The notes under the pieces were generated by a model. The model was not told the DNA's origin. It was given only the letters and a program-made list of their open reading frames with translations, and did no database searches. 64,000 nucleotides of DNA. Source: Favolaschia claudopus. Its lineage: Eukaryota > Basidiomycota > Agaricomycetes > Agaricales > Mycenaceae. This document shows, one piece after another, positions 11,692-43,879 of this stretch. Numbering within the stretch: position 1 is the first letter of the stretch; each line of letters starts with the position of its first letter. The position numbers and the translations under genes were made by a program. The stretch is from the NCBI GenBank assembly GCA_037176885.1, contig JAWWNJ010000076.1:124001-188000 (forward strand), in the 5' to 3' direction.

Positions 11692-11790
11692 ATGGCTACC
11701 CCCAAGGATTCCACCTTTCCGTTATACGACGGCGCCCGGCAAAGCTGCACAGCGGGCTATTACGAGCTGCCTCACGTTTATTCCAAAATG
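11692..11790 (+). pseudogene. ORF3 N-terminal stub of copy A
   Basis: MATPKDSTFPLYDGARQSCT and the following GYYELPHVYSKM align with the first 33 codons of the intact ORF3 (38,352). The frame is then cut, and R2-type sequence follows without a break at about 11,790, which marks the junction of copy A with copy B. Confidence 0.75.
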
Positions 11791-12790
11791 AACGCTCCCA
11801 ATCTTTAATCTACACCTCTCGTCTTCCGCTGCGGGTCACGGTGTGAAGGAGCGGTCTAACCGCCACATTTGACGCGCTCAGCGGCACCGACGATCGTGAC
11901 GCTCTCAATGCTCAATCGGTGTGAATGAGCGGTCCAACCGCCACACCTGGAACTGCTTGATGTTTCCATGCTTGCGCACCGGTTTCTTGCTGATGAGGTT
12001 ATCGGCTTTTCACCCAAAGCTATGCTATTACAGTGTGCCACGGCTTCGAGGATTCGGGATTCAGCCAAACATGTGTCGTTCACTTCCACTTGCAATTTCC
12101 AAATTTCTGCCCGAGTTCACCCCAGAGCTAGTGGCCCCAGGCCTACCCCAAGGCTAGGGATTTTTGTTTTCTCATGCCTACCCCAAGGCGTGGTGCCGAG
12201 CCTCCCCCAGGGCTTGCGCATTTAGACCTGGCCACCCTAGGCTGGTGTTGACTTGACTTCGTTCTATTTTGTTTATGAAACTATACCTTTTCCAAGACCG
12301 AAGTTCGATGTCCCCGGCGTACACAGTTCAACGTCGCTGCATGTGAGACCGGCGAGGATCCCAAACCGAAAGTCTTGGTGTGAATGAGGGTTCAACCGCC
12401 GCATCTAGGATTCGTCACCGGGAGGGCATTGGTTACCCATCGCAAGGTTTGCTTCGTTTTTGTACGTCTGAGTCTCCCCAGCCATTAACACATCGAATAG
12501 ATGCTGGATTCCGTTTTCCGCCTAGTGCACAAACCCACGGTGTCCCTCCATCGCAACTAAATTTATGCTTCCCCTTCCATAATTCTCTTCGCCAGCTCGG
12601 CGTTCGTATCCAGCATCACGGCCGTCGAGGTCATCGGTTTTGCGATTGTAAGCCTTGCCACCATTTCACCCCACCAAACATGTTTCTTCATTCATACCTC
12701 GCCGTCTTCCGCTGCGGGTCTCGGTGTGAAGGAGTGGTCTTACCGTACATTCTTCCTCTCTCCCCCTTGAGGTATTCTGTACGCTGCATA
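11791..12790 (+). repeat. R2 repeat block and leader of copy B
   Basis: Palindromic GAGCGGTCTAACCGCC units lie near 11,850 and 11,935. The CCTACCCCAAGG / CCTCCCCCAGGG words follow (12,135-12,240), then a GGGTTCAACCGCC unit (12,385). A further 250-bp stretch (12,480-12,740) is almost identical to 43,020-43,280. It contains no gene; it is the leader portion of copy B, truncated at its left end. Confidence 0.6.
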
Positions 12791-12802: not shown

Positions 12803-12815
12803 GAGCGCGTTAGAA

Positions 12816-13290: not shown

Positions 13291-13757
13291 AACCATGTCG
13301 TCAATGTCTTTGGGATGCCGGAGCGCATCATCGCTGATCGCGACAAACGCTGGCCTACAGCGTTTTGGCGCTCCGTGGTGGCTCAAGGACGGGCAGACGG
13401 AGATACTAGACGCTACCATCGAACAGATGTTTCGAGCGTACGTAGCAATACGCACAACATCTTGCTGCTAGGATATCATCCGCGCGGTGCAGCGGGGCTG
13501 CTGAATCCGGAGGGTGATCCTGTAGTCCGTCCCTCAGAGCAATGCACTACCTTGTAGCCACGGAAGAATATGTGGTGGAAGCGATTCGATTCTGGGTCAT
13601 AAAACGCTGTCGCGTAAAAGGGAAATCAAAGGATGTTCAAGGTGCGGTGGCAGAGATATGGACCAGCGGACGACACTTGGGTCTCCGAGCTGGACCTTAG
13701 AAACGCTCCGGAACTCAGGCGTGAATACTTGAATCTACATAAATTACCGTTTGTTTA
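13291..13757 (+). pseudogene. Copy B integrase and chromodomain fragments
   Basis: The nucleocapsid remnant runs straight into HVVNVFGMPERIIADRDKRW (integrase, second Asp region). A second internal deletion then reaches the LLLGYHPRGAAGLL segment, and chromodomain codons follow from about 13,565 (EYVVEAI, frameshifted) to ELDLRNAPEL near 13,720. Protease, RT and RNase H are absent. This is an independent deletion with breakpoints different from copy A and from the element at 31,364. Confidence 0.75.
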
Positions 13758-14018: not shown

Positions 14019-16866
14019 ATGGCGACCTCTTCGGATAGCGACCCCCTCTTCCCGCTCTACTCACGAGCGGCTCGCCAGAACTGCGCAGCGGGCTACTACG
14101 ACAGCCCAGAAGTCTATTCGGGGATGAGATTCGAGCTACGACGAATCCCGACGGTCTATTCGAGGGTGGTCAAGCAGAAGGAAAAGAAGTGGGAGCTGTG
14201 GTCACCAAACTCGTCCCAGACGCCATTTCTACCTGGATGGAGGATACCTGGATCGCTGCCAACCCTTCCGAAATTGTTGGAGGACCGTCGATACGATGGA
14301 CACGTAGGGAGGATGGACTGCCTCTTTTCTCCTCACTACTTCGGAGAAGACGTGCCCCACTGGCCCTTTATCCGCCGTCAACATATGGTCCTGTCGAACG
14401 ACTTCGCGTACGCCGCCTACGAACCGCTGATGAATCAATGGGCGGTGGACAGGGACGACCGAAGGATGGGCAGATTCCGCCCGGAATACGTGGAAAGATT
14501 AAGTGCGTTGAGGCGCGAGCTCGATGAACGCATGGAGGAGATCAAGGCTCGACTCCGCTCGGGCTCGACGACTTGGAGCTCCCGCCCTCAGTACGCCACG
14601 CCTACCGTAATCACCGAGCTTCTGGGAACCCGGTTCTGGTGGGACGCGGTGGACCGCGGCATGGGAGTGCAGAGAGGGCTGAGAGAAAAGGAGGCTTGGT
14701 TGACGATGATGCATGCGCGGCGATCCCTCGGTCAAATGACTATGGAACAGCTGCGAGGCATCGAGTTCCCTCCAGCGGATGAACGCTTTATGGGCGTCTG
14801 GGTCACTGGCAATGGACTCTTAGTAGAAGGAGCGGTACTCTGCAATCTCTGTGCTGGTCTCCCTTGCTTCATTGTTCGTGCTTGTGAGCCGGAGGACCGC
14901 ACCCGAGCCGACGTTGTACCCTACGACGGTTCGATCTGACTTTGTCACTGGCACGGACGTCGCTAGCGAGGTGGCGGATGGCCCATACCAGAGACTCGCT
15001 CGTCCAGAAGCCCAACGCTTAGACGCGCTGTATAAGTTACCGGACCATAACATTTCGTTCCCCACTACCGCTCCCGACGAGGCAAAGCTGTCGTCTTCCT
15101 TGTACCTGGAACAGATGGGCTTCCTTCCTGTCACCTGGACTCGGGATCCATTCACCGCGCCGTTCAATCTACTGGGCTGGCGCTCAGGGAGCGCGGTGCA
15201 AACTGCGATCCCTCCGCCGCTGACAACGATAGCGCTCCCAGCTGGTCGGGTCGTGAGCGAATGACGGGCGAAAGATCTACCGTTCCGGGAAGGGTGCGTT
15301 CCACCGTCTAATAGCGCGGGCAAAGGCAAGGGCAAGGCGACGGTGGAGCACGAAGCAGAAAAGTGGAGGGACGACGCTGTGGCAGGCATGGAGGTGCCAG
15401 AACCAAGACCAGAGGAGGAGGCGACCAACGTATTGATCGTCCTAGGCTTCAGCGAGGATATCCGCGCTGCCACCTTCGAGGCCATGGCTCGAGATGCCTT
15501 CTTCCATGCGCGCGTTCGACCCTTGTCCGGCGAACGATCGCATGTGGATCAAGTTTGCCACCACTACAGAAGGAAGGCAAGCATTCGGAACCGAATACAC
15601 GGTCGCTCACAATCTGCGTCTTGAGTATGAGAAGGATGAGCAATTCATCATGGTTTTGTCGCGCTCCGACGATGTCTGGCCTGAGCAGGAGAGGCAAGGG
15701 AACCGAACGAGAGAGGCAGAAGGGTCGTCCCAGTCGCAAGATGGTGGAGCGGGGCCGTTCCAAACCACACGCATAGAGACCTTGCAACAGACGCCCGCTC
15801 ATTCATCGACGCCCGCTCGCTCCCCGTCACCGGTCAATCCTCCGTCGCCGGTTCATCCTATGTCGCCTGCCCACTCAATGTCGCCCGCTCGCTCCCCCAG
15901 AGCATTTATCTCTCCCCCTCGCCCGCCAAAAATCGAGCCGCCAACGACTGCACGAGGTTGATCTCGTTCATATTCCCTCTCTAGTAGTACCAGTAGTAGT
16001 TCTAGCTCTAGTGATAGTTCACGTTCTCGTTCCCGCTCTCATTCTCGCTTACACCGCCGCTCTGGTCAGCGCTCCAAGCATCGTGCTCGCTCTTACCACC
16101 GTCGCTCTCGACATTCTCGCTCCCGCCACCGTCCTCGTTACCGCTCGCGTTCTCCCTCGCACCATCGTCACCGGCACCCCCGCTCTCCCTCACATCGACA
16201 CCGACGATCGCGTTCGCACTCGCCGGCACTACAGACGTCGCTCGCGGTCCAGCTCGCGCAACTCTTCCCCTTCTTCTTCGGGCTCTGATTCCAGACGCCC
16301 TTCAACCCCGCGATCCCGCATGAAAGCCAAGAGCAGCTCAAGTGCTCGCGCTGCGAGGCCGGTGCCGCTCAGACAACGCTTACGATCGCCGCCCCGGCCT
16401 CCAGCGCCACCCAAAACGTGCCGCGCGAGCCTAGAGCTATGTGCACGCCCTCGTTGTTTTCACGTCTTCAGCCTGCGAGCCCACCTCCGCTACTGCAACG
16501 AATGACGGGACTCTCCCTGGAAGGCAGCACCTCTTCGCCGCTGCCTCGTCTACTCCAGCGCTCGCAGCCCCCTCCAAGTTCCTTGATCCAGAGGCTGGGT
16601 GAGGAGGACGATCAGCCTACTGCGAACAAGAAGAAGGCTAAACGAGGGCAGCGAGGGGGGGATCTACAGCTAAGAAGGCGAGGGAGAGGAAGAAAAAGAA
16701 TCTGGCGGCTCTCCACGCATTGCAGCAAGCCCAAGGGATAACGAATGAAACCCCGGCAGCTTCGTCCTCCTCCACCTTGCGTAGAGGATGTGGACATTGA
16801 CGAGGAGAAAGACGGTGCGCATTAGACGAACGAGGATGATGAAGACGCAAGAATGGGGCCTGCATA
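14019..16866 (+). pseudogene. Copy B ORF3 (SR/RRM-like retrotransposon protein), frameshifted
   Basis: Nearly full-length homologue of the intact ORF3 at 38,352-41,588. The N-terminal block (CAAGYYDSPEVYS, RMDCLFSPHYFGED, NDFAYAAYEPLMNQW) is open to 14,939, followed by a shift into FVTGTD...SSSLYLEQMGF (to 15,264), a deletion, then the RRM-like segment (ATNVLIVLGFSEDIRA, later RMWIKFATTTEGRQAFG). From 15,960 an Arg/Ser domain (SRSRSRSHSRLHRRSG-type) is preserved although many codons differ. The Pro-rich tail (LRSPPRPPAPP, TPSLFSRLQP) and the closing Asp/Glu then ARMGPA stop at 16,866 are also kept. At least three frame breaks make it inactive. Confidence 0.78.
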
Positions 16867-21203: not shown

Positions 21204-21349
21204 GAATTGGTTTACCTAGAATTCGATCATGACTCTCTGGCATCTGTTGTACCACCGCTTCGTAGGCAGAATTATATCACTAGTGTCAATCTACGATGTG
21301 TGAAGGTTGAGATCTCTACAGCGAACCACTGGAAGGTTAGACCCCACGG

Positions 21350-21480
21350 TGCGCATTGGACTAACGAAAATGATGAAGAAGCAAGAATGGGGCCTGCATA
21401 AAAGTGAACGGAACTGTGATCGTATGACGGTGTATATGCGTTTCTACTGACTTACGCGCTCGCTATGTATACCTTATAAT
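21350..21480 (+). repeat. ORF3 tail plus LTR start fragment (copy C)
   Basis: GTGCGCATTGGACTAACGA, the Asn/Glu/Asp-rich codons and ARMGPA stop at 21,401 match the ORF3 end at 16,815-16,866 and 41,550-41,588. At 21,415 a TGTGATCGTATGACGGTGTA sequence is the LTR start with a small insertion. The polypurine tract is lost. A relic of a fourth copy. Confidence 0.65.
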
Positions 21481-24517: not shown

Positions 24518-26928
24518 ATGTCGTCCTCTCGTCCTCAAGAGTCCTTATCGGCATCGCATTTCAAGAAGAAAAAGAGCAAGCCTTCTCCTGTCTCTGTTCC
24601 GCTCCAGGCTGGTGTTCCTGCCGCCACCACGGTTACAAACAAGGCAGCGTCTCTTCAGCACTCGTATTCACCGGATGCACGAACCGACTCCTTGCCTCTG
24701 CGCAGTAACCCGAGCTCGCGAACTCCCGAGCTTGAACCCCAGTCCGACTCCTTACCTCGGAACTTTCCAATCTTTATCCCCCATCGATGGAACGTAAACC
24801 CACTCGCTCCTTTCCGTGACGTCGTGCCGATTGATGGCTCAAAGTTAGAGTGGCTGAGGCCCCCGTCTTGCACGAGGAATTTGCTCAAGTCAAAGAAACA
24901 GAAATTCATACTCACTGACCATCTTGGCTTGCTAGTCTGGATGGAAACGTCAAAAAAAGTGCGCTCGACTTTTCAAACATACGACCGGGATCTCTCTCGC
25001 ATCTTGTGCTTCAACGGCGCCTCGTCGGACATCTTCGCCGGCGTTGTGGAAGCAGAAACCTATGGAATGCCAGTCCCCGGTTTTCCGTTTATGTCAATAC
25101 AAAAAAACATGGTTAAACCGCAGACTTCCTCTTCTTGGATGTACTTGAAGGAGGAGAGCGACCCAGATCCCCAGCAGCCACTCGCCGTTCCATCTGCTGA
25201 GACGCTTGGCAGGTCGCCTCGCAATCCGTTCCAGCGCTTGCATGACGGATCGGACGGAGATGAGGATCTATATCTACGGAATCCATCTCAGCACGAACTA
25301 CCCACCAACGTTTTGGCTGCATTTGGAAAGCTGGATCCTTCGTCCCTAAAGGAAATTCGTGACAAGCTACGCACCGTGGCGTACGCAGATGTTGGGCGTA
25401 GCATATGCCCGTTAGCGATGGTTGGGGACGCTCAGTCTTTGTGGCTCATGTATGATACCACCATGGATTGTCTGTACGCCTTGGGCCTACTAGACCGGTA
25501 TGTGAAAGGCCTGGAATTCGTGAGGTTCGAGACGCACGCGAATTTTGCGGAGCGTTTCAACGCGGGGCAACAACGGTGGAAGCGTACCAACCTGGACTGG
25601 TCCCCACACAATACACCTGTGCTACCTCCTGTGGAAGAAGTCCTCCATAGTCGTGCACCTTACAACGTCAGCGGAAAGGATATGCCAATCTCATCCCAGC
25701 TAGGATCCGCAGACTCGGAAGAGCGATGTGGAGGTCATGACAGCGAGCCTGTGGCGGAGGGTTCTCTGTTGCAAAATCTGCCCTTTACAACAGTGCCACT
25801 ATCTCGGGTATCTACACCGGCTCCCGAAGCCCATGAATCCATTACAACAGACGGGATCCCCGAAGACCAATCTCAGGGTCATAATGAAAGTGGACCTATT
25901 CCAGTCGCTCCTCCATTAGAACATTCGATCTCTACAGTAGTGCGCGCGCCTCAGATATCGACGCTATCTCCGGTCGTCCACGAAGCCATTCCAACAGAAG
26001 AGGCCCCTGAATCTCCCTTGTCCAGCGTCTCATCAGCGTTATCAGATGTTGAATCTGATTCTAAGCATGAAGGTTGGTCTTCATACCAGCAATCTCCCGT
26101 TTCCTGATCCATGCGTGGTTTGTTAGGCCCTCAGAGCATAACTGCCAAGCGTAAACTGGGACCGGAAGAAATTAGCATTCCCTCCACCGTCAAGCGAGTG
26201 AAGCTCGTTCTGCCTCAGCATCACCACCAAGTCCCAAGCATCTCAGTGGATCCATACTTCGGAAAATCTGGCCAGTCGAACCGACCTCTTTCTACAAAAC
26301 ACATTGAAACTATGAATGTCTTTAGATACTCACGAACTGCTTTGCACGAACGGGGAAGCATGGGACGCTGGTGCGTTCTTTCTTTACTCGCATGTAAATA
26401 CCAACTCAAAATTTTCCCAGTATATCATGCTGATTTTCAGTTTGGAAAGGAAAAGAACGTCAGGTACGGCCCATAATGCGTTTGAACTACATCTCTGAAA
26501 AATGGTTGCGTAGATTCGCAGTGAAGCAAATTTTGCGAGAAAAGCAAACAGGTACATGTTCGATCCATGGGAGGTACGGGTTCTTGAACACAGAAGGCTA
26601 CATTGAAGAATATGTACGTATGCTGGCACCGTAAATGGGCGTGTATTTTATTTTCCCTCATGACCAGGCCCCTTGCCCTGAAAATATGGCCATGGATAGC
26701 TTTCGAGAGGAGTTTCTAGAACACACCGGATTTTCTTGGGAGGAGAAGGAACCGGGGTTGAGGGGTTCAGGCAATATACGCCGCCCATCGGGGAAATATT
26801 ACTGGGTTGGTGAGTATAAATTTCTGAATTCATCCTCCAGTAATTAAATTGCGCATGCAGGCCACAGCAATGACTCTGGCGTTGCGGTACATCCTGTCAG
26901 CGTAGATCAAGGAAACCGGTTGGCATGA
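24518..26928 (+). CDS. Multi-exon gene related to the retrotransposon ORF3 middle domains
   Basis: The first exon (24,518 to about 26,072) begins MSSSRPQESLSASHFKKKKS. Residues about 105-215 match ORF3: IDGSKLEWLRPP aligns with IDPDRVAWIVPP, and the pattern G-x-PVP-x-x-PF...S-x-WMYxKE is shared (183-213 here, about 515-545 there). Residues about 268-340 (NVLAAFGKLDPSSLKEIRD...LWLMYDTTMDCLYALG) line up with the RRM-like segment. There is no Arg/Ser domain; instead an acidic Ser/Pro tail. Further exons with clean GT/AG introns follow: GPQSITAKRKLGPEE, FGKEKNVR, IRSEANFARKANRYMFDPWE, then SFREEFLEHTGFSWEEKEPG and WVG-HSNDSG, stop 26,926-26,928. The introns and open frame make it look like a host gene; it could be a captured source or a descendant of ORF3. 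Confidence 0.65.
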
Positions 26929-30990: not shown

Positions 30991-31215
30991 ATGATGCTGG
31001 CGGGGACGTCTGAAATGCCTAGCGGGGCCGGTCATGGAGCTGGGGAAGGATTGCAGAACGTTGGCAAGGACATTGAGCAAGTTCAATTTTGCAAAGGTGA
31101 CGGGGAAGACGAGAATCACCCCAAAGGCAGCAATGATGACGACACTGCCGAGATGATTGAAGAGGTCGCCGAAGACGAAGGCGATTGAAAGTGAGAGCAA
31201 GGTGGCAAGACCGAT
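30966..31215. repeat. Direct repeat X, right copy
   Basis: Partner of 28,926-29,150. It begins at GTTTGCCACCTTCCCGATAC directly after the recombinase GGWST codons. On the minus strand it encodes LATLLSLSIAFVFGDLFNHL and VVIIAAFGVILVFPV, a two-pass membrane-like stretch of unknown family. Confidence 0.55.
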
Positions 31216-31363: not shown

Positions 31364-31750
31364 TGTGATACGGTGTATATATTTTCACTACTTAGTACAC
31401 GGCCGTACCTGTACTTTACTTTACTTTACTTGATTTAGCTAATATTGATTACTCGTCCCTGCAGTACACGAGATTACCTCATAGATACAAATCTATCTTG
31501 CTTTACTACTACGATGAAGAGGGATATTAGCGGCGAACCACCGACATGCGTTAGACCCCCTGCTTGCCTGAGCATGCGTCTAACTGCTCCATGGCCCCGG
31601 TGTTGCAGGGACTCCTGTCCAGGGTCACACGACCCCTCGTCGAAGGGTTACAACGACTGACGACTAACGACAACCAACCGCCAGCGCTCTCAAAGCGCTG
31701 GCTCCTTCCAACCCTACTTCCAAGAGCCACAAAAGTCGACTCGCATCACA
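31364..31750 (+). repeat. 5' LTR
   Basis: 387 bp, TGTGATACGGTGTATATATT to GACTCGCATCACA. It differs from the 3' LTR by several small indels and a handful of substitutions, so the insertion is not brand new. The 3' part has a CCAGCGCT-CTCAA-AGCGCTGG hairpin, also kept in the remnant at 7,625. Confidence 0.9.
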
Positions 31751-31796
31751 ATGTAGCTCACCGCGAGGGCTTTTGGGAGAGGGAAGGAGCTTGGGA

Positions 31797-31848
31797 CTTC
31801 ACTCAGCGCTGCGAGCCATTTGGCTTGCGTAGCTGCTAACGAGTGAAG
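31797..31848 (+). ncRNA. Leader hairpin HP1, reference element
   Basis: Outer stem CTTCACTC/GAGTGAAG, extended by CTTGG/CCAAG outside; inner stem GCGAGCC/GGCTTGC (one G-T pair). It lies about 45 bp after the LTR. Confidence 0.72.
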
Positions 31849-31917
31849 CCTCCAAGGTATTATTCTCAACTTATCCTAAGGCTGGACTTCTGGATGTTTC
31901 TACATACCACTTGGGTG

Positions 31918-31965
31918 CCGCTCAGCGCTGCGAGTCTTCCGACTCGCGTAGCTGCTAACGAGCGG
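31918..31965 (+). ncRNA. Leader hairpin HP2, reference element
   Basis: Outer stem CCGCTC/GAGCGG with CTTG/CAAG outside; inner stem GCGAGTC/GACTCGC on a TTCC loop. Compared with HP1 the A-T pair of the outer stem became G-C. Confidence 0.72.
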
Positions 31966-31983
31966 AGCCTTCAAGGAGCCCGA

Positions 31984-32038
31984 GGTCTCACTCAACGCTG
32001 CGAGTTTTACGACTCGCGTAGCTGCTAACGAGTAGACC
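31984..32038 (+). ncRNA. Leader hairpin HP3, reference element
   Basis: Outer stem GGTCT/AGACC with ACTC/GAGT next to it; inner stem GCGAGTT/GACTCGC. The AGC...GTAGCTGCTAACGAG core is shared with the other copies. Confidence 0.7.
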
Positions 32039-32180
32039 TTCAGGGATTGGGGGGCGCTGGATGCCTGACGCGATGTGCTGGCGTATCGGGATTATCGGCC
32101 TTATCGGAGTAACGGAAGTCACACCACCATTCTCCCCCTCACCATCTTCATCTCGCTTGCGCAATTCCGTACGCTGCATA

Positions 32181-32192
32181 CCGCGCAAGCGG
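32181..32192 (+). ncRNA. GNRA-tetraloop hairpin, reference element
   Basis: CCGC-GCAA-GCGG, 134 bp upstream of the gag ATG, in the context TACGCTGCATA...GGAGCGCGTT. Confidence 0.68.
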
Positions 32193-32325
32193 GAGCGCGT
32201 TGGAGTCTGCCGCAGCGGCTGGTGACTCTCTTTCTCATTCCTTGAACGCTTAAAAGCCATGGGATGCCGGCCTTCAATATTCTTCCAGGCTTTTCTCTTG
32301 ACTTCAACCTAACGAACTCGCCAAC

Positions 32326-35300
32326 ATGCCTGATCCCGTCTACGACGCCAATAATCCCAATCTTATCATCGACCGCGCTGCTTCGACGCGTCAAAGCTCC
32401 AACAAGGACACTTCAGCTGGTAGAACTCTCGCTGGATTCAAACTCGATGCGACGGGCCCTAAATCTCAGAGGACTTCAGCGCCGTCCGCTCCGCGAGACG
32501 TGGCGACGTTGCCTTCGAGTGGGGTCCCTGCCCAAGGAAGCTCTGCTCCCTCCAAGAATGCTCGCTCGCGTATTCTCAGTCCTACGCCGACCGCTGGCGC
32601 TCGCCAACCTCCTCCGACGCTAGGGGCTTTCGAGCCGCGCATTCCCTCCCACATGAAAGAAACAGGAATACGTGGCCTCGCTCCCATTGAAATAAAACCC
32701 GTCGGGTGGAAGTCTTCAAATTCTTCACCGCTGTATGCCAGTCCTTGGGAGAACGTGAGTCCCGTCACTGCTGAGGGACAACCCACGACGCCTCTCGCCC
32801 CCGCGAACCCTCCTGCGCGCCCTTCCCATTTACATCTGCTTAGCGCGGTCACCAAACCCGCTAGCCCTGATGGAAACGGAAGCGTAGCTAGCGAAGGAGG
32901 TCGCAGCGAGAGAAGTCTCCCCAGCACAAGGCATAGCAATCGCGGCCCCAGTCCGCAAGCCGGCTATGTTCGCCCTCCTTCAGGAAGCCCTCTCACGAAA
33001 AGTTCGGGCGAAGAGAGCGACGTCCTCCCTCACCCGGAACACAAGAAGGCTAACGAGGGCGAAAGCATCACAGTAGCCCTCAGCCGCCCTCGTGAGGAAA
33101 AGCGAAGTAGTGGACCGGACTACCCCAAGCTATTCACGGGGCCGGGAGCCGCAATTGACGAGCCCCTCGTCGCGTCGGTGCAGAGGCTGCACGGAGAATA
33201 CGATCCAGCGGATGGTACGGAAGATCCGCTGTCGATATTCGGAGCGGAAGGAGGTGAACTTCCTGGGTATGACCCCGCCCGTACCATGCATTTGCGAGAC
33301 GCCGTCACCCGCTACATTCAGCCTAGCCGTTTCTTCGAGGGCAACCTCGTCTCTATCATACAGAAGGTGGTTCAGCTGGACGCAGGGAAAGTGGTGTTGA
33401 GAGTTCTGGAGGATACTAGGACGTCGAAGCGAATCTATAGTCTGAATCTGAACGATCTGAGCGATACCGCTCATGCCTCGCAAGGCGTTCAGCAGATCTT
33501 GGAAGCGCTGACGGCCTTTCTCCAGAAGGATCCCAAGAAGAGCTTCACTTTGGATCCTGACTACGGATTTCTGAAGCTAGCCGAATACAGCGAGGACAAG
33601 GCTGAAGTGCGATTCGCGCTTTCTACTCTACAGAGACGCCTCGACACCGCCAACACGCACATAAACAAGTACCTCCAGGCCATCCAGGGAACCTTGACTG
33701 GAGATGCGGCTAGCGACGCGATAGGATCGATGGACTCTACGATTTCGTCCGTTCGAGAGGTCTTCGGCAAGGAACACCCCTCCAAGGAGTTTAATCGACG
33801 CACCCGACCGTGACTCTATGATCCTGCAGTTGCGGGAGGTGCCGCGTACCAGGTGGTACAAGCTGCGGTCAACTCAAGCGATTCCTACTTTGAAGGAGCA
33901 AGAAGCACCTTCCAACTCTCCTCCAGCAGCGGTGACTGCGAACACAGTGCCTCCCGCCGCTGCGGCGTCGAACAGCGCGGCTCCGGCCGCTGCAGTTCCT
34001 CCGCCCGAAGCACCGGAAGCCGCCGCTCCCCCTCCAACCACTCCTGGAGTTCTGGGAGTGCGCTTTACGGCGCCTTCGACTCCGCGCCCTAGACTGTCCG
34101 CCATCTCCTTCCTACCAGGACACGGACGTCTCCGTAACACGGACGGATCGGACGCGTCTAAGCGTACGTTTGTAACAGGGGGGCCATCGTTGATGCGAGA
34201 AAGTGGCGCGCCGCCAGCAGACTCTGCGAGGCCTCCCAAGACGTCTTGGACTAGCTACCAATTCAAGACGGTGTCGGAGACCCCATCGCAAGCAGCAGCT
34301 CCGCCGCCTGCGCCTGGCAATGACGCTCCTCCGCCTGCGCCTGGATACGGAGGCGGAGGAGGCGGAGGCGGAGGTGGAGGAGGCGACTTCCCTGGGATGG
34401 CTGCGCCAGGGATTTTTCCCGAGCGCGCGCCTGATCAGTGGCAGATCAATTACAAGCTGAACGTCGCTATCATTCCCTCATGGAATGGCTTGGGGAAACC
34501 CTTATCAAATATGTGATTGACATGGCAGGCCTAGCTCTCCTCAGCCCTCGGATGAACAGTGATATAGCGCAGATAGCGCCATCCAAATTCGAAGGGCGTG
34601 CTCAGAATTGGTGGAATGGTCTCTTACCGCACCGAAGGGTTCACTTCTGTCAGAATTGGGACCATCTCCTAGAGGCTCTCCGTGGACAGTTCATGACGAC
34701 GCTATGGGTTCATAATCGCATGAAGGAATTTGAGGAGATGAAGTACCGCCAGAGGGGACAGGAGGGCGAGGAACCCATTGACTTTCCAACGACGGTTTCA
34801 ATACCATGGATTTCTCTTTGCGGACGTTGAGGGTGGACCCGGGGCCGTCACTCGCATCTTGCGCACGCAACCGCCGGAGTGGGCTAAAGATATTAACGAA
34901 CGAGTCTGCCCCGACGTGGAGACCCTCATGGTCGTCGCGGAGGAGGAGAAGGACGCGTTGATTTCCGCCTGGGTCATGGCCCGGAAGATCAACTCCCTCT
35001 TCAACGCCTCGACGTCCGCGTCGTCTAACTCCGCTCCCCAACGTTACCGTCGCGCGCATGTGGTCGAAGTTCCCGACGAGGAGGATTTCATCGCTCAGCG
35101 AGCTGCAGAGGAAAAAAGTGAAGATGAGAAAACGGCATTGGCGACGGACCGTCGGTTTAGATCGACGTCTCAGCGCCGCCCTGCGGGAGAGAAGCAAGCT
35201 GCATCCCCGTCTTCCCCACCAGGGAAGACTACAAATGCATACTTCTTTGCTCGCGACGACTCCAAAGTCAGCGTGAAGCCTCCCAACCGAGCCCCAAACA

Positions 35301-35350
35301 CGTAGCTAGAGATTGTCCTCATTTCGGTCAATGGGACTCGCTAAACCGTG
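32326..35350 (+). pseudogene. Gag of the reference Ty3/Gypsy element, frameshifted
   Basis: ATG at 32,326 (MPDPVYDANNPNLIIDRAAS) opens 495 codons rich in Ser, Pro and Thr, ending in a helical part (SVQRLHGEYDP, RYIQPSRFFEGNLV, LLRR-like coils). After a stop at 33,811 the frame shifts to an Ala/Pro-rich spacer with a 12-Gly run (34,350-34,385), then to the capsid core (KFEGRAQNWWNGLLPH, LRGQFMTTLWVHNRMKEFEE, YRQRGQEGEEPIDF), then to QPPEWAKDINER and RRAHVVEVPDEEDF. The nucleocapsid zinc knuckle is damaged: HVARDCPHFG remains, but the CYIC half present in the fragments at 13,280 and 43,850 is missing. Gag builds the virus-like particle; this copy cannot do so as written. Confidence 0.8.
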
Positions 35351-36921
35351 CTCTCCTAATTGAGGTAGATCGAGACCCTACGGAGGAAGCTAGAGAGATA
35401 CAAGAGCATGTAGCTATGATGACCACAATCGCATCCCCTTCCGCTTATGATGGTGTGATTGAACGTGAAGTAATGGTTGTAGGGGCGGAAGCCCATGTTG
35501 TTAAAGAGGGCCCTTACAACCGTAACCGACGTCGCAGAGAATCCTTTGAGAGCGGCAAATCCTCTGTCAAGGATAAAGGCAAACTCCCTCAGGAGAAAGC
35601 GTCCATACTCCCTCGCAGAGAACTACGCCAGGCTGCCGTTGTCTCTGTGCTCCCTTCCTACGTCAATGAGGCGGGAGTAACGATTCATGCCGCTCGGGAG
35701 GCTCGTCAGCTGCCTGATGGATTAGGATCCTATGGCGCTCGAGCCCTTCATACCAAAGTCAAGGTGGCCTCCCTCGACAACGCCGAAGTAAGGGGGCGGT
35801 TGGACTCCGGCGCTGACATCACTCTAATGTCGGAGGATTTCTGGGCTTCCATCCCTGGGCTTCCTAAACCGAAAGAAGGAATCAGGATGACTCTCTACCA
35901 CCTCACCGGGCAAGCTAAAGTGTTGGGATACATAAACATGATGAAGACAACGCTTTACATGACTACGAAAGACAATGAGATCATTAGTTTCGATCTCGAG
36001 GCCTACGTGGTGAGGAATATGAAGGTCCCCCTCCTTGTGGGCGAGGATTTCCAATCGGCCTACGAACTGGGAGTTCAGAGATGGGGAACAGGACATTGCG
36101 ACGTCTCGATCGGCAAGACGAGGCACGTCATCCCAGCGTCCTCCGCTCTCGCCGTAGACCTGGGCTTTGAAATTCGACAAGGTAGAGTTGCTAAGGCTTC
36201 AGGGCGACGTCTGCTACCAGGGATTTGGCGAAAGACATATCAGCGATCTCGAGCCAGGAAGTGGAAGGAAGGGAAAACGGAAGCTCCGCCAGTTTTAGCG
36301 GCACAAGATGCGCTAATTGCATCCGGATCGGTGCACAATTTTCGGGTTTCAGGCCCATTTGAAGGGAAGGAAGAGTGGCTAGTGGAGAAGGTTATCATAT
36401 GCAAGCGTAATGGCAGCCCCGACGACGCTCATAAATTCCGCCGCGCCGTACCTCCCTATAGCGAACCCCAGTACGCGCCCGTTGTATATCCGCGTTGGCG
36501 ATATTGTGGGCAAGCTGCACGACCCAGCAGAGTTTGCGGACACGCCTAAGTCGGAAGAAGAGCTGGAGAAAATGGTGGCTTCGGCGGAAGCGCTCGCGAG
36601 AGTGATTCAAGAAACTCACCGGGTGCAGGATTCTGGCGTAGTAGCTCCTGATATATCGCCATCACCTGATAAGCTAGAGGAGGATCACCATTGGGGACCT
36701 AAGACCACAGCGCTGCCAGGAGAGTTTGAAGATGAGGAGGGAAAGACCGACGTAGCGGAGATGGTAAATCTGGGGCTGGATATCCCAGAGAAAATTCGTC
36801 CAGAGCTGGACGCCGTACTGCGCCGCAATGCGGCTGCGTTCGGCGTTGGAGGACGTTTGGGGCATGTAAAGGAAAAGGCTCCTGTACCGGTCAGAAGATC
36901 AAAACGGACCATCGCAAGAAT
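35351..36921 (+). pseudogene. Protease and pre-RT linker of pol; RT and RNase H deleted
   Basis: The frame 35,416-36,549 includes the retroviral-type aspartic protease: the active-site block RGRLDSGADITLMSEDFW and the later VPLLVGEDFQSAYELGV. A frame break near 36,400 leads to SAAPYLPIANPSTRPLYIRV and GDIVGKLHDPAEF, then AAFGVGGRLGHVKEKAPVPV, the linker that normally precedes the reverse transcriptase. Instead of RT the sequence jumps at about 36,890-36,920 to integrase (RRSKRTIARIWEG, then LRPAHIPPRPFATVSLDLI). No YxDD, RNase H DEDD or HHCC zinc motif exists anywhere in the element. Confidence 0.8.
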
Positions 36922-38151
36922 ATGGGAGGGTTGAGGCCAGCCCACATACCTCCTCGTCCATTCGCGACAGTGTCGCTAGACTTGATCACAGGGCTGCCGC
37001 CCTCGGGACCAGAAAAGTTCACCGCTATCCTAGTGATAGTGGACAAGCTTACTCGCTTCGCTCTCATGATCCCCACACACACTCAGCTTTCGCAAGAAGG
37101 ATTCGCTAGATTCTTCATCGACAACGTCGTTAATGTATATGGCATGCCTGAGCGCATCATCGCTGATCGCGACAAACGTTGGTCTACAGCGTTTTGGCGC
37201 TCCGTGGTGGCTCAGTATGGCAGCGTCATGGCGTTATCATTCGCGCATCACCCTCAAACGGACGGGCAGACGGAGATTCTAAACGCGACTATCGAACAGA
37301 TGTTGCGAGCTTACGTTGCGAAGGATCGATCTTCCTGGGCGATGTGGTTGAAGGAAATTGCGTTCGCGTACAATTCGAACGTACATGTTTCTACTGGCTA
37401 CTCGCCCAATTTCCTTCTTCTAGGATACCACCCGAGAGGAGCAGCCGGACTGCTACATCCGGAAGGTGACCCGGTTGCGCGCAAAGGTGAGGACTTTATC
37501 GCTGCACTGGAAAGTCATCGTCAAGCTGCGAGGGACGCGATAGCCATTGCACAAGAACGACAGGCTCGCGCTTACAATAAAAAACGGCGTCCCGTGGAGC
37601 CTATTGAGGAAGGGGACTATGTTCTGGTTAACCCCCACTCGCTGGAGTTAGTGGTTGTAGAAGGAACGGGGAAGAAGCTGGTGCAGCGCACCATTGGGCC
37701 GTTTGAAGTACTGGAGAAGGTTAACCCCGTCGTCTACCGACTTCGTCTCCCCGACACTTACCCGATGCATCCTGTGATAAATCTGGAACACCTACGGAAA
37801 TATCACGTCTCTAACGATGACTTTGGGGAGCGCACGGTCCTCCCAGATACTCGCGATTGCCTCACTGCGACTGAGGAGTATATTGTGGAGGCCATATTGG
37901 GTCACAAGACGAAGTCGAGAAACAAGGGTAACCAGAGGATGTTCAGAGTCCGTTGGCAAGGGTTTGGACCGGCGGACGACACCTGGGTTTCAGAGCTGGA
38001 CCTCAGAAACGCTCCAGAACTTAAAAGGGAGTATTTAACTATATGCATAAGTTACCATTTGTTGAATAGTCGCGAGGCGATAGAGTTACGTACGTGTGAA
38101 TTTGTACTTGTAGTTTTGGTACACTCTTCTTCATTCACTACTACGGCTTGA
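36922..38151 (+). CDS. Integrase core with C-terminal chromodomain, 409 aa, open
   Basis: The DDE core is complete: Asp in TVSLDLITGLPP, Asp in GMPERIIADRDKRWSTAFW, Glu in HHPQTDGQTEILNA. A GPF-type module follows (RTIGPFEVLEKVNPVVYRLR), then a chromodomain (EYIVEAILGHKTKS...MFRVRWQGFGPADDTWVSE...LRNAPELKREY), about residues 325-385. The usual N-terminal HHCC zinc domain was removed with RT, so MGGLRPAHIPP is only the first possible start, not a native one. The open frame over 409 codons contrasts with broken gag. Chromoviral chromodomains bind modified histones or silent chromatin and target insertion. Confidence 0.8.
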   Translation: MGGLRPAHIPPRPFATVSLDLITGLPPSGPEKFTAILVIVDKLTRFALMIPTHTQLSQEGFARFFIDNVVNVYGMPERIIADRDKRWSTAFWRSVVAQYGSVMALSFAHHPQTDGQTEILNATIEQMLRAYVAKDRSSWAMWLKEIAFAYNSNVHVSTGYSPNFLLLGYHPRGAAGLLHPEGDPVARKGEDFIAALESHRQAARDAIAIAQERQARAYNKKRRPVEPIEEGDYVLVNPHSLELVVVEGTGKKLVQRTIGPFEVLEKVNPVVYRLRLPDTYPMHPVINLEHLRKYHVSNDDFGERTVLPDTRDCLTATEEYIVEAILGHKTKSRNKGNQRMFRVRWQGFGPADDTWVSELDLRNAPELKREYLTICISYHLLNSREAIELRTCEFVLVVLVHSSSFTTTA

Positions 38152-38351
38152 CGCGCGTTTCGACGCGATCTTGCTGCAGTATTCCTGTGTGCTACTTCTC
38201 TGCTTACTATCTCCCTCTTGCTCTCTCCTCCTCGCTTTCTTTCGTCGCTCGACCTTGACGCGCGTTTCGACGCGATCTTGGCTGTGACTCGGAATCCCCG
38301 ACTGTTGGAACGACCATTATCCTTCGACTCGACCCCTTCGCACTAGCGAGC

Positions 38352-41300
38352 ATGTCTACCGCTCCAAATGCCGACTTCCCGTTGTACTGGGGCTCCCGAC
38401 TGAGCTGCACCGCGGGGTACTACACTCCTCCGCAAGTGTATTCGAAGATGAAGTTCGAATTGCGCCGGATTCCGCAAGTGACTTCCAGAGTGGTGAAGGA
38501 CGGGCAAGGGCGACGGTGGGAGTTGTGGTCTCCTAACTCGATACAGACTCCCTTTTTACCGGGATGGAGAGCGCCTGGGCCTCTGCCTCCGCTTCCCGCT
38601 TCGGAGGAGGAGCGTCGCTATGACGGGCATCTTGGGCGAATGGACTGTCTCTTCTCCCCCCACTACTCCGGGGAATTCATCGCGCACTGGCCGTACCTAC
38701 GTCGTCCATACTCCGTCCCCTCCAACGACTTCGCGTACGCCGCGTACGAACCACTTATGAATCAGTGGGACGTGGACTCGCGGGACCATCGCAAGGGCTC
38801 GTTCCGCCTCGAATTCATACATCGCTTGAATACCTTACGGAGCGAATTGGATAGTCGAATGGAAGCCATGGGAGCCCGACTTCGCGGTGGATCGACAACC
38901 TGGGCCAATCGCCCTCAATATACGACTTCGACGATTATCACCGAACTTATGGGAGTGAGGTCTTGGGGAGACGCTGTGGACCGAGGCGTGGGAGCGCAGA
39001 GAGGACTACGGGAGAAGGAAGCATGGCTCTCCATGACTCATGCGCGGCGCGTCCTGGGTCGAGCGACCATGGACCAGCTGCGAGGAGTCCGATTTCCCCG
39101 GGCGGACGAGCGCTTCATCGGTGTATGGGTTAACGGGATCAATGAAGGAGCGGTGCTCGCCAACATGTACGCTGGGATTCCGTGCTTTATAGTACATTCC
39201 TACGCTGCAGAGGACCTTACGCGGGCTGAAGTCGACCCTGCCATTCCGACCCCTTCCGATTTCGTCACAGGCACCGACGTGATCACCGCCGTACTGGACA
39301 GTCCATACCAAAAGCTAGCTCGCCTGGACGCATTCCGACTAGACGTGCCGCTTCGTCCCTCGAAAGAAGCCGTCTTGCAAGTCAACCCGTCTCCCGAAGA
39401 AGAAAAACTATCCTCCTCCCTCTACCTCGAGCAACTAGGAGTACAGCCAGATTCGTGGAAGAAGGCGGACTTCGACGCTAACCCGGAGCCCTTCGACCTC
39501 CTGGGATGGCGCAAGGGAAGCGCGGTGCAAACCGCGAATCCTCAAGCACCCCTCATCTTCGTTCCTCCGCCTGCGCCTGCGCCCACGGTCGGCCCCGCTC
39601 TTGGAGATCCAAGCACGAAACAGGACAAATTCGCGCACCAAGAGCTGGAGAAGCAAGTGATCGATCCGGATCGTGTTGCTTGGATTGTCCCGCCTCCCGT
39701 CGCCGAGGCCGCGCGCGAAGGTAAATGGGCGATGTACGAGTTGGAGGAGCTGGAGAGTGGAAGGACCGCGTTCATCTATAGGGGAAAGAGTAACAAGCCA
39801 GAGACGGACGAGAAGTTTTTCGACAGGGTCAAGAAACGGCGGTTATACATGGGGGAGTACGAGGTACCAGCAGGAGTATTGAACAAAGGAGTCTTTGGCG
39901 TCCCCGTCCCTCGCTACCCTTTCGTTATAATGGACGGCATCAAGGAGAGGATGGAGAAACCCTCCTTCTGGATGTATAAGAAGGAGGCGCCGTTGAAAGG
40001 AGACGCCGGGAAGAAAGCTGAAACCCCTCGAGCGGAAGAGCTACCCTTCCTGCCAGGACGAGGACCTTCCACCAGCGTTGAGGGTAAAGGGAAGGGACGA
40101 GCGACCGCGGAGCAGGAAGCAGAAGAATGGGCGAAGGATGCGATGAGAGGCATTGAGGTGCCATTACAGATACCGGAGCAGGAAGCCACCAATGTGTTGG
40201 TTATCCTAGGCCTTAGCGAGGACATCCGCGCTGCCGACTTCGAATCTCTGGCCCGCGACGCTTTTCATTTTGCGCGCGCTAAACCGCTCGTCATAGCACA
40301 TGCGGATGGCCGCATGTGGGTCCGTTTCGCCACCATCACCGAAGGGAAACAAGCTTTTGGGACGGTCTACGCAGTGGCGCAAAAACAGAACGCGTCAATG
40401 GAATACGGCAAGGACGAGCACCTCGCCATCGTGCTGTCACGAGCCACCGACACATGGGCTAACCCTGAGGTGGTAGTAAGTGAGGCCAAGAGCGTCGTCG
40501 CTCCCCCTCCGCCGCCTAGTGGAGGCGCGGGGCCGTCGCAAGGGCCCTCCTCCACGCCAGTGGCTCCATCCTCTACGCATGAGGAGCCGCCAGCCGCCAA
40601 AGCCGCGAAGGAATCCCCACGTCCTCCGAGTCATCCTCGCCCTGCGGAGACCAACTACCGCTCCCGCTCCCGTTCTAAGTCTTCCTCCTCTTCCCGCTCG
40701 CGTTTCCGTTTATCCCGCTCGCGTTCTGAGTCCAGCTCCCGTTCTCGTTATCGTTCTGACTCCCGTCGTCGAGCTCGCCCACGTTCTCGTTATCAGGCTC
40801 GCTCCCATTCCCGCCGCCGTTCCAGGTCTCGCTCTAGCCGGCGCTACCGCTCTCGCTCTCGCTCCAGATCTCGCTCGTCTTCCTCGTCTGGCTACAGCTC
40901 TCATGGTCCCTCGCCTCCTCCTACCGCCGTGAAACAGAGGGGCAGGTCTCGGACTCGCGCCATACCACGTCCCCCGCTCCAACAACGCCTCCGCTCGCCT
41001 CCTCGACCGCCGTCGCCACCAAAACTCACGCCACCTCCTGCTCCGACTGAGCCTGGGGCAATGCGTACGCCCTCGCTGTTCTCTCGGCTTCGGCCTACCT
41101 ATCCGCCCCCGCTGTTGCAAAGAAGGCCGGGGCCTCCTCTCGCTGATCGAATCTCCACGCCGTCGGCGCCCCTTCTCCAGCGCATGCAACCTTCCCCAAA
41201 CTCACTACTTCAAAGAGTAGGGGGGCCAATACCGTCTGGCTCAGGTAAACGCAAAGCGACGGAGAAGGAGGAAGGAGAGACGTCCGAGGACACGGATGAG

Positions 41301-41588
41301 GGGCCGGTTACGCCGGTCAAAGCGAAGAAAAAGGCGAAAAGAGGACAGAGAGGTGGATTGCGTGCGAGGAGAGATAGAAAGAGGCAGAAAAAGAAGCGTG
41401 AGGCTCAACAAGCGTCTGCGGCGCAGCAAGAGGGAGGAGGAGCTGAGGCTACCCCGTCAATGTCCATACCGCTGGATCAAGTCATCTTGATACCAGGCGA
41501 AGACATGAATTGGCCAGATGACGACGCGATGATCGGAGAAGGCTGGGCGGCGGAAGATGACGAGGATGCTAGGATGGGGCCGGCGTAA
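38352..41588 (+). CDS. ORF3: 1,078-aa SR/RRM-like protein between pol and the 3' LTR
   Basis: Intact single exon, ATG at 38,352 about 200 bp after the integrase stop. Residues 1-430: an unassigned globular region (CTAGYYTPPQVYSKM, RMDCLFSPHYSGEF, NDFAYAAYEPLMNQW, AGIPCFIVHSY). About 435-545: a block shared with the gene at 24,518 (VIDPDRVAWIVPP; GVPVPRYPF; SFWMYKKEA). About 610-700: an RRM-like segment (ATNVLVILGLSEDIRAADFE; GRMWVRFATITEGKQAFG), with strand-helix-strand order and an RNP1-like Gly-Arg-Met-Trp-Val-Arg-Phe. About 770-850: dense Arg/Ser repeats as in splicing SR proteins. Then a Pro-rich part, a basic cluster (KAKKKAKRGQRGGLRARRDR) and an acidic end. There is no signal peptide, membrane segment or fusion motif, so it is not an Env. 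RNA binding or splicing control of the element's RNA is inference. Confidence 0.8.
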   Translation: MSTAPNADFPLYWGSRLSCTAGYYTPPQVYSKMKFELRRIPQVTSRVVKDGQGRRWELWSPNSIQTPFLPGWRAPGPLPPLPASEEERRYDGHLGRMDCLFSPHYSGEFIAHWPYLRRPYSVPSNDFAYAAYEPLMNQWDVDSRDHRKGSFRLEFIHRLNTLRSELDSRMEAMGARLRGGSTTWANRPQYTTSTIITELMGVRSWGDAVDRGVGAQRGLREKEAWLSMTHARRVLGRATMDQLRGVRFPRADERFIGVWVNGINEGAVLANMYAGIPCFIVHSYAAEDLTRAEVDPAIPTPSDFVTGTDVITAVLDSPYQKLARLDAFRLDVPLRPSKEAVLQVNPSPEEEKLSSSLYLEQLGVQPDSWKKADFDANPEPFDLLGWRKGSAVQTANPQAPLIFVPPPAPAPTVGPALGDPSTKQDKFAHQELEKQVIDPDRVAWIVPPPVAEAAREGKWAMYELEELESGRTAFIYRGKSNKPETDEKFFDRVKKRRLYMGEYEVPAGVLNKGVFGVPVPRYPFVIMDGIKERMEKPSFWMYKKEAPLKGDAGKKAETPRAEELPFLPGRGPSTSVEGKGKGRATAEQEAEEWAKDAMRGIEVPLQIPEQEATNVLVILGLSEDIRAADFESLARDAFHFARAKPLVIAHADGRMWVRFATITEGKQAFGTVYAVAQKQNASMEYGKDEHLAIVLSRATDTWANPEVVVSEAKSVVAPPPPPSGGAGPSQGPSSTPVAPSSTHEEPPAAKAAKESPRPPSHPRPAETNYRSRSRSKSSSSSRSRFRLSRSRSESSSRSRYRSDSRRRARPRSRYQARSHSRRRSRSRSSRRYRSRSRSRSRSSSSSGYSSHGPSPPPTAVKQRGRSRTRAIPRPPLQQRLRSPPRPPSPPKLTPPPAPTEPGAMRTPSLFSRLRPTYPPPLLQRRPGPPLADRISTPSAPLLQRMQPSPNSLLQRVGGPIPSGSGKRKATEKEEGETSEDTDEGPVTPVKAKKKAKRGQRGGLRARRDRKRQKKKREAQQASAAQQEGGGAEATPSMSIPLDQVILIPGEDMNWPDDDAMIGEGWAAEDDEDARMGPA

Positions 41589-41603
41589 AAGCAATCGGAC
41601 ACT

Positions 41604-41619
41604 GCGTGTAGGGGGGCAC
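41604..41619 (+). promoter_or_regulatory. Polypurine-like tract before the 3' LTR
   Basis: GCGTGTAGGGGGGCAC ends right at the LTR start. The same GTAGGGGGGCAC is found at 16,889-16,900 before the copy B LTR. It is the expected site for plus-strand priming, although only six purines in a row are present and it is unusually G-only. Confidence 0.6.
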
Positions 41620-42022
41620 TGTGATACGGTGTATATATTTTCACTACTTAGTACACGGCCGTGCCCTCTAAGTACTTTACTTTACTTGATTTAGCTTACT
41701 ATTATTGATTACTCGTCTCTGCAGTACATACACGAGATTACCCCATAGATACAAATCTATCTTGCTTTACTATCTACTACGATGAGTGAAGAGGGATATT
41801 AGCGGTGAACCACCGACATGCGTTAGACCCCCTGCTTGCCTGAGCATGCGTCTAACTGCTCCATGGCCCCGGTGTTGCAGGGACTCCTGTCCAGGGTCAC
41901 ACGACCCCTCGTCGAAGGGTTACAACGACTGACGACTAACGACAACCAACCGCCAGCGCTCTCAAAGCGCTGGCTCCTTCCAACCCTACTTCCAAGAGCC
42001 ACAAAAGTCGACTCGCATCACA
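41620..42022 (+). repeat. 3' LTR
   Basis: 403 bp, TGTGATACGGTGTATATATT to GACTCGCATCACA; longer than the 5' LTR through small duplications (TACTATCTACTACGATGAG, CAGTACATACACGAG). Followed by CTCTC, close to the CTCTA left flank. Confidence 0.9.
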
Positions 42023-42689: not shown

Positions 42690-43340
42690 TACAGTGTCAC
42701 TGTGCCGTGACAGCTTTGAGGATTCGGGGGTTCAGCCAAACAAAGCCAAACATGTGTCGTTCACTTCCACTTTCTGCCCGAGTTCACCCCAGAGCTTGCG
42801 GCCCCAGGCCTACCCCAAGGCTAGGGATTTTTGTTTTCTCATGCCTCCGAAGTTCGATGTCCCTGGCGTACACAGTTCAACATCGCTGCATGCGAGACCG
42901 GCGAGGATCCAAAACAGACAGTCTTGGTGTGAATGAGGGTTCAACCGCCACATCAACGGGAGTGCGTTGGTTAACCATCGCAAGGTTTGCTTCGTTTTTG
43001 TACGTCTGAGTCTCCTCAGCCATTAACACATCAAATAGATGCTGGATTCCGTTTTCCGCCTAGTGCACAAACCCACGGTGTCCCTCCATCGCAACTAAAT
43101 TTATGCTTCCCCTTCCATAATTCTCTTCGCCGGCTCGGGGTTCGTAGCCAGCATCACGGCCGTCGAGGTCATCGGTTTTGCGATTGCAAGCCTTGCCACC
43201 ATTTCACCCCACCAAACTCGTTTCTTCATCTATACCTCGCCGTCTTCCGCTGCGGGTCTCGGTGTGAAGGAGCGGTCTAACCGCCACACTTGAGGCTCTC
43301 AGCGGTTACCGTACATTCTTCCTCTCCCCCTTGAGGTATT
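42690..43340 (+). repeat. R2/leader block of fragment B'
   Basis: Matches 12,030-12,780 of copy B: TTCAGCCAAA, CATGTGTCGTTCACTTCCAC, the GGGTTCAACCGCC unit (42,938), the 250-bp segment 43,020-43,260, and a GAGCGGTCTAACCGCCACAC unit (43,270). The CCTCCCCCAGGG part of copy B is missing here. Confidence 0.65.
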
Positions 43341-43354
43341 CTGTACGCTGCATA

Positions 43355-43366
43355 CCGTGCAAACGG
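43355..43366 (+). ncRNA. GNRA-tetraloop hairpin, fragment B'
   Basis: CCGT-GCAA-ACGG in the usual context, 15 bp before the gag remnant. Confidence 0.62.
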
Positions 43367-43380
43367 GAGCGCGTTAGAAT

Positions 43381-43872
43381 GCCTGTCGAGCACCATGACT
43401 TCTACCAACGCCGAGGCTTCATCTTCGCGGATGTCGAGGGTGGTCCTGGAGCGGTAGCTCGGATCTTACGCATCCAACCTCCGGAATGGGCTAACGACAT
43501 CAACGAGCGTCGTTGCGTTAACATCGAAAAGGATGCGTTGATCTCCACCCGGGTCACGGCGAGGAAGATCAACTCCTTCTTCCAGCAATCCCGCAAGATT
43601 CCGAAGGGCTCATGTGGTGGAGGTGCCGGATGAGGAGGACTATATAGCGCAGGAGGAAGCAGAGGAAGAGAATGAAGAGAAAGAGGCCTTGGCGACGGAC
43701 CGCCGATTCCGGTCGACGGCTCAGCGCCGCGCCCCAACGGACTCCAAAAGCATCGACGCCTTTTTCGTCTACCCCGGGCAAGACGGTGAATGGATATTTC
43801 TTCGCTCGCGACGACCCTCGAGTCAGCGCGAAGCCTCCTAATGGCGAATGCTACATTTGCACCAGCACTAAC
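43381..43872 (+). pseudogene. Gag C-terminal fragment of B'
   Basis: RRGFIFADVEGGPGAVARIL and QPPEWANDINER, then after a frame break VPDEEDYIAQEEAEEENEEK and RRFRSTAQRRAPTDS, and finally NGECYICTSTNHD near 43,850 with two Cys and the His of the nucleocapsid zinc knuckle. The leader-to-gag junction is the same as in copy B, so both descend from one deleted ancestor. After 43,872 it runs into R2 units. Confidence 0.7.
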
Positions 43873-43879
43873 CATGACT

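What the first reader, a model, noticed from the sequence alone, without database searches (positions are those of the whole stretch)
38352..41588. LTR retrotransposon with a large SR/RRM-like third ORF in the env position
The sequence shows an intact 1,078-codon ORF after the chromodomain integrase, with an RRM-like segment, a long Arg/Ser domain and a basic nuclear-type tail, and no membrane or signal segments. Known Ty3/Gypsy extra ORFs in this position are mostly Env-like. A splicing-factor-like protein suggests control of splicing, export or packaging of the element RNA. A decayed homologue in the same place at 14,019-16,866, a stub at 11,692 and a tail at 21,350 show it belongs to the family and is not a one-off capture.
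Basis: partly seen in the sequence, partly recalled or inferred. Interest (0 to 1): 0.88.

Follow-up and report, generated by a model that had tools for sequence, protein, structure and literature searches.

The report
Mushroom retrotransposon with RNA-binding-like third gene
A retrotransposon of a mushroom carries, where retroviruses keep their envelope gene, a large extra gene whose protein is predicted to contain an RNA-binding-type fold, and related genes occur in several other mushrooms, so it may help the element handle its own RNA.

Summary
The 1,078-codon ORF at 38352-41588 lies between a chromodomain integrase and the 3' LTR of a 10.66-kb element (LTRs 31364-31750, 41620-42022). Residues about 608-704 are predicted as an RRM-type fold at high confidence. 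The ORF belongs to a family: 46 database proteins found, 15 from Favolaschia claudopus (probable host; two are the window's own copies), 20 from nine Mycena species, 2 Laccaria, 2 Hypsizygus, 7 unnamed. One Mycena vitilis gene model joins the same integrase tail directly to the ORF, an independent case of the linkage. dN/dS between two window copies is 0.11-0.25 by two methods, 0.60 by a third in one segment. Corrections: this copy lacks reverse transcriptase and has frame-broken gag, so it is non-autonomous; a strong Arg/Ser tract is in 4 of 29 long members; the most widely kept parts are two domains without a detected known fold, and the RRM is weak or absent outside Mycenaceae. Best reading: an element-encoded, probably nuclear RNA-binding accessory protein, perhaps acting on hairpins in the 5' leader. 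Function is untested; a genome-wide copy count failed. An 'additional ORF with unknown function' was noted in such elements in 2010.

The parts
31364..31750 (+). 5' LTR (387 bp, TGTGATACGG...CGCATCACA)
   Evidence: gapped blastn against the 3' LTR, 378/404 columns
31797..32038 (+). 5' leader with three tandem bulged hairpins (the third folds less regularly)
   Evidence: fold z-score -5.5, 0 of 200 shuffles as good; related copies at 7740 and 9188; 5 of 21 pairs with double changes
32160..32211 (+). second leader hairpin, GCAA loop (GNRA type)
   Evidence: six copies in the window fold alike
32326..33813 (+). ORF1, 495 aa, no Pfam match, gag-region N-terminal part by position
33818..35305 (+). 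rest of gag in broken frames; Retrotrans_gag match in 34435-34827 (24.4 bits, cut-off 24.1)
35416..36549 (+). protease region (weak Asp_protease_2 match, below cut-off); no RT or RNase H follows
36922..38151 (+). integrase core (weak rve match), SH3_Tf2-1, chromodomain
38148..38173 (+). 26-nt repeat, first copy, at the integrase end
   Evidence: exact match
38255..38280 (+). 26-nt repeat, second copy, upstream of ORF3
   Evidence: exact match
38352..41588 (+). ORF3, 1078 codons
38394..39341 (+). ORF3 N-terminal domain (residues 15-330)
   Evidence: predicted mostly at pLDDT over 80; profile found in 47 of 48 proteins scanned
39639..40046 (+). ORF3 middle beta-rich domain (residues 430-565)
   Evidence: profile found in 46 of 48
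40173..40463 (+). ORF3 RRM-like domain (residues 608-704)
   Evidence: profile found in 25 of 48
40659..40958 (+). ORF3 Arg/Ser tract
   Evidence: 38 RS/SR dipeptides in 100 aa
40968..41235 (+). ORF3 repeated LxxR[LMVIF] motifs followed within a few residues by P or A (5)
   Evidence: 0 of 500 shuffles reach 5; pattern chosen after seeing the sequences
41307..41408 (+). ORF3 basic, NLS-like tail
   Evidence: aligned to KKKVRRG-type tails in Mycena
41609..41619 (+). polypurine tract TAGGGGGGCAC
   Evidence: sequence
41620..42022 (+). 3' LTR (403 bp)
14019..16866 (+). copy B ORF3, decayed, after an integrase remnant and before an LTR start near 16901 (about 44 bp of LTR matched)
11692..11793 (+). 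copy C ORF3 stub after an integrase remnant
21346..21412 (+). fragment matching the ORF3 tail and purine tract of copy B (88%)
24518..26107 (+). diverged 529-aa ORF (P0035) with the middle domain and RRM-like domain but no N-terminal domain

Best explanation
ORF3 is a long-standing third gene of a group of agaric Ty3/Gypsy chromoviruses. It encodes a protein without hydrophobic membrane segments: two structured domains of unrecognised fold, an RRM-type domain, a disordered C-terminal half with repeated LxxR motifs (Arg/Ser-rich in some lineages) and a basic NLS-like tail. Most likely it is a nuclear accessory protein that binds the element's own RNA, perhaps at the structured hairpins of the 5' leader, and so promotes export, protection from splicing, or packaging of the full-length RNA. 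Shown here: position, family, predicted fold, constraint. Inferred: disorder of the C-terminal half, nuclear location, RNA binding, the RNA target, and which RNA step it serves.
Confidence: 0.5

Rival explanations
1. ORF3 is chiefly a structural or assembly protein: a second Gag-like or particle-associated protein whose N-terminal and middle domains matter most and whose RRM and basic tail only add nucleic-acid affinity.
For: N-terminal and middle domains are the most widely kept parts (47 and 46 of 48; RRM profile 25 of 48, with 13 of the 23 misses in models of at most 594 aa). The C-terminal repeated LxxR motifs look like protein-docking motifs.
Confidence: 0.2
2. ORF3 counters host silencing or steers chromatin: a nuclear protein protecting the element from RNAi or heterochromatin, in the manner of plant VANC-type factors (recalled).
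For: Basic NLS-like tail and motif-rich C-terminus; retention in diverged, multi-copy families.
Against: No recognised silencing-suppressor or chromatin domain. An RRM is more directly an RNA-binding fold.
Confidence: 0.15
3. ORF3 is an Env-like gene that has diverged.
For: Env position, between integrase and 3' LTR.
Against: No signal or membrane segment by hydropathy, RRM-type fold.
Confidence: 0.02
4. A host gene captured recently, or an ORF open by chance.
For: gag-pol around it is broken while ORF3 is open.
Against: Homologues in nine Mycena species, Favolaschia, Laccaria and Hypsizygus, in several of them more than one; mostly species-grouped copies in the tree; dN/dS well below 1 by most estimates; linkage to integrase in M. 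vitilis.
Confidence: 0.03

Closest known systems
CERV of Cer1, a C. elegans Ty3/Gypsy-related LTR retrotransposon (PMC10309623; abstract and sections 6 and 15 read)
   Same: Large non-Env element-encoded protein with several structured domains; CERV is nuclear and needed for export of the element's genomic RNA
   Different: CERV is described with a G domain resembling G proteins and an M domain with a cysteine loop, and is made from a spliced mRNA; ORF3 has an RRM-type domain. No sequence comparison was made here, and export is untested for ORF3
[quoted passage not shown] the figure itself was not seen)
   Same: Extra ORF in an element of a survey of chromodomain Gypsy elements that included Laccaria bicolor
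   Different: No fold, family or function is given in the text read; which element carries it and whether it is the same ORF could not be checked
Sense additional ORFs (env-like) and antisense ones of plant LTR retrotransposons (PMC7264820, passages read)
   Same: Extra ORF between pol and 3' LTR; nuclear location reported for some antisense ones
   Different: Sense ones are described as Env-like, some with membrane segments; ORF3 has no hydrophobic segment and an RRM-like fold
ORF3s of bdelloid rotifer LTR elements (PMC5408684, abstract and outline read)
   Same: Non-envelope ORF3 in LTR elements
   Different: Those named are GDSL esterase/lipase and DEDDy exonuclease; ORF3 here matches no Pfam family
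SR proteins (recalled)
   Same: RRM plus Arg/Ser tract in this copy
   Different: The strong Arg/Ser tract is in 4 of 29 long family members; two further large domains
Retroviral Rev with its structured response region (as described in section 15 of PMC10309623)
   Same: Idea of an element protein acting on a structured piece of its own RNA
   Different: Homology not tested; the hairpins here lie in the 5' leader; no interaction shown

Membership tests
Ty3/Gypsy chromovirus | Integrase with C-terminal chromodomain | tested here: met
   SH3_Tf2-1 2.9e-16 and Chromo 1.1e-9 above cut-off; rve 0.0017 below cut-off
Ty3/Gypsy chromovirus | LTR pair with TG...CA ends | tested here: met
Ty3/Gypsy chromovirus | 5-bp target site duplication | tested here: inconclusive
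   CTCTA vs CTCTC, 4 of 5
Ty3/Gypsy chromovirus | RT and RNase H between protease and integrase | tested here: not met
   No RT or RNase H match in the ORFs covering 35161-38151 and no room for them; in copies B and C gag-side and integrase matches adjoin. This copy is read as a deleted derivative; the filing rests on integrase, chromodomain and LTRs
Env-like third ORF | Signal peptide or transmembrane segment | tested here: not met
   Hydropathy only: maximum 19-residue mean 1.27; N-terminus hydrophilic
RRM superfamily | beta-alpha-beta-beta-alpha-beta fold | tested here: met
   Predicted strands 615-619, 647-651, 654-658, 682-686 and helices 627-640, 662-678; RRM matches
RRM superfamily | RNP1 and RNP2 aromatic consensus | tested here: inconclusive
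   One aromatic (W656) invariant in 18 rows; others absent by eye; consensus recalled; no Pfam RRM match
SR protein | Arg/Ser domain kept across the family | tested here: not met
   4 of 29 long members with 13 or more RS/SR per 100 aa
Rev/CERV-like export factor | Binds element RNA and is needed for its export | not testable with these tools
   needs experiments

The most novel reading that the evidence does not exclude
Agaric chromoviruses evolved their own RNA-handling system: an element-encoded RRM protein that assembles on tandem covarying hairpins in the element's leader and decides export or packaging of the full-length RNA, a fungal counterpart, of separate origin, to Rev or CERV.
Probability: 0.22. 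Interest if true: 0.82.

Novelty: new variant of a known kind. Interest (0 to 1): 0.62.

Why it matters
Sense extra genes in the env position of LTR retrotransposons are often read as envelopes or left unnamed. Here is a family in at least four agaric genera with, in Mycenaceae, an RRM-type domain, two domains of unrecognised fold and no hydrophobic membrane segment. If it handles the element's RNA, it would show that control of genomic-RNA export or packaging by an element-encoded protein arose in fungi too, and would give a testable protein-hairpin pair.

Tried and rejected

A search for gene models of 1025-3262 aa holding ORF3 together with pol gave 15 hits; none is longer than 1214 aa and none lists Pfam domains, but one (P0038) carries the integrase tail. 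RRM outside Mycenaceae: hhalign of 5 Hypsizygus/metagenome segments (P0014, P0015, P0020, P0021, P0023) against 7 Mycenaceae segments, 60% probability, E 8.6e-5 for one comparison; the profile itself gives only 0.022-1.2 for P0020, P0021 and P0023 and nothing for P0014 and P0015. So homology there is possible, not shown. My first motif and Arg/Ser tally used 24 of the 29 long proteins and left out P0002, P0004, P0011, P0012 and P0048; one search counts all 29, and four of the five left-out proteins (all but P0048) lack the LxxR motif or do not exceed shuffles. Paper searches: in their listings I recognised no paper on an RRM-bearing extra ORF of fungal LTR elements; the library lacks most subscription papers, and most listed papers were not opened.

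Full report
What is there. The window holds a 10.66-kb LTR element, 31364-42022. Its LTRs (387 and 403 bp) align over 404 columns with 378 identities and 18 gap columns, hence 8 mismatches. They begin TGTGATACGG and end CGCATCACA. The flanking five bases are CTCTA and CTCTC. Inside are ORF1 (32326-33813), frame-broken gag with a Retrotrans_gag match, a protease region (weak match), integrase with SH3_Tf2-1 and chromodomain, and ORF3 (38352-41588), followed by a purine tract and the 3' LTR. [quoted passage not shown] In copies B and C of the same window the gag-side and integrase matches adjoin, at different junctions. This copy is therefore not autonomous.

Host. P0006 matches copy B of the window in four segments of 95.7-100% identity, 541 of its 753 residues; P0026 matches copy B's N-terminal part at 92.7%, so it is probably a further copy. 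The window is therefore very probably F. claudopus, a Mycenaceae mushroom (PMC10905254, abstract and outline).

Family. Three protein searches returned 22, 31 and 15 rows, together 46 distinct proteins: 15 F. claudopus (14 named so, plus P0024 by its contig; P0024 and P0006 are window copies A and B), 20 from nine Mycena species, 2 Laccaria bicolor, 2 Hypsizygus marmoreus, 7 unnamed. Each search scored only about 8,000 best candidates within a length bracket, so the list is a lower bound. A tree of 39 of the 48 proteins at hand mostly groups copies by species, with several divergent copies in F. claudopus (two separate groups), M. vitilis, M. filopes, M. crocata and M. belliarum (one copy apart). 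The tool warns of long branches, so deeper joins are unsure.

Linkage. In copy A ORF3 lies inside an LTR pair; in copy B it follows an integrase remnant and is followed by an LTR start; the stub C follows an integrase remnant. In M. vitilis, P0038 starts with 80 residues 74% identical to residues 264-343 of this integrase ORF and continues as ORF3; of the 48 proteins whose first 140 residues were compared, it is the only one with such a match. A genome-wide count could not be made because the genome search did not complete.

Selection. Only segments alignable without frame breaks were used. Copy A against copy B, dN/dS components: N-domain, 294 codons, 0.24/2.19 (NG86) and 0.26/1.56 (LWL85). 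Residues 302-408, 103 codons: 0.38/3.2 and 0.42/2.6. Residues 552-646, 94 codons: 0.32/1.28, 0.32/1.30, and 0.41/0.68 by YN00. RRM part, 68 codons: 0.47/2.7 and 0.47/2.5. YN00 failed for three of these four. Integrase A vs C, 297 codons: 0.12/1.44 and 0.13/1.06; integrase A vs B, 40 codons, gave no usable dS; ORF1 A vs C, 206 codons: 0.27/1.47, 0.30/1.80, and 0.30/1.07 by YN00 (all). Synonymous sites are near saturation, B and C are decayed, and the pairs differ between genes, so these are rough; they put ORF3 roughly in the range of ORF1 and integrase.

RNA side. The leader 31790-32050 folds at -109 kcal/mol against a mean of -85 for shuffles (z -5.5) into three bulged hairpins of one type, the third less regular, also seen at 7740 and 9188. 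On five sequences, with one row misaligned at the 3' side, 5 of 21 pairs have changes on both sides; 7, 16, 6, 118 and 6 of 500 shuffles reach the five measures, and the tool warns that these are not probabilities. A second hairpin type with a GCAA or GGAA loop occurs six times in the window. A 26-nt repeat lies twice between integrase and ORF3 and once in each of copies B (two mismatches) and C. None of these has been tied to ORF3 by experiment.

Mechanism. An RRM-type domain, a basic tail, no hydrophobic segment and a structured leader in the same element make an RNA-handling accessory role the most economical reading. CERV of Cer1 (PMC10309623) shows that a non-Env protein of a Gypsy-related element can be required for export of its genomic RNA. 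Which step ORF3 serves is open.

Prior knowledge. [quoted passage not shown] In a later survey of fungal LTR elements, 12 of 19 places were shown and mention no such protein (PMC3248453). A word search of the Laccaria transposon paper found none of six terms, ORF and env among them (PMC3411680). I therefore call this a new variant of a known kind.

Noticed in passing
window 31797-32038, also 7740 and 9188: Tandem bulged hairpins in the element leader with covarying stems; the leader folds better than shuffles
   Followed up: partly
window 32160-32211, 7987, 8220, 12773, 27284, 43325: A conserved hairpin of about 50 nt with a GNRA-type loop in six places, some of them outside recognisable copies of this element
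   Followed up: partly
window 38148, 38255, 13961, 11620: 26-nt repeat TTGACGCGCGTTTCGACGCGATCTTG between integrase and ORF3
   Followed up: no
window 24518-26107: Open 529-aa ORF with the middle and RRM-like domains of ORF3 but a different N-terminus; no LTR context worked out
   Followed up: partly
window 36900, 13258, 10371: Three copies of the family reach integrase without RT and RNase H, with different junctions
   Followed up: no
window 17489-18883 and 29365-31188: ORFs that look by eye like tyrosine recombinases (recalled resemblance); one piece from each stretch tested matched no Pfam family
   Followed up: partly
window 31364-31560 vs 41620-41830: The differences between the two LTRs lie in their first half, four of them 4-bp steps
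   Followed up: no
window 42847-43874 and 12298-13291: About 1-kb repeat, 90% identical, holding a gag remnant, next to copies of the element
   Followed up: no
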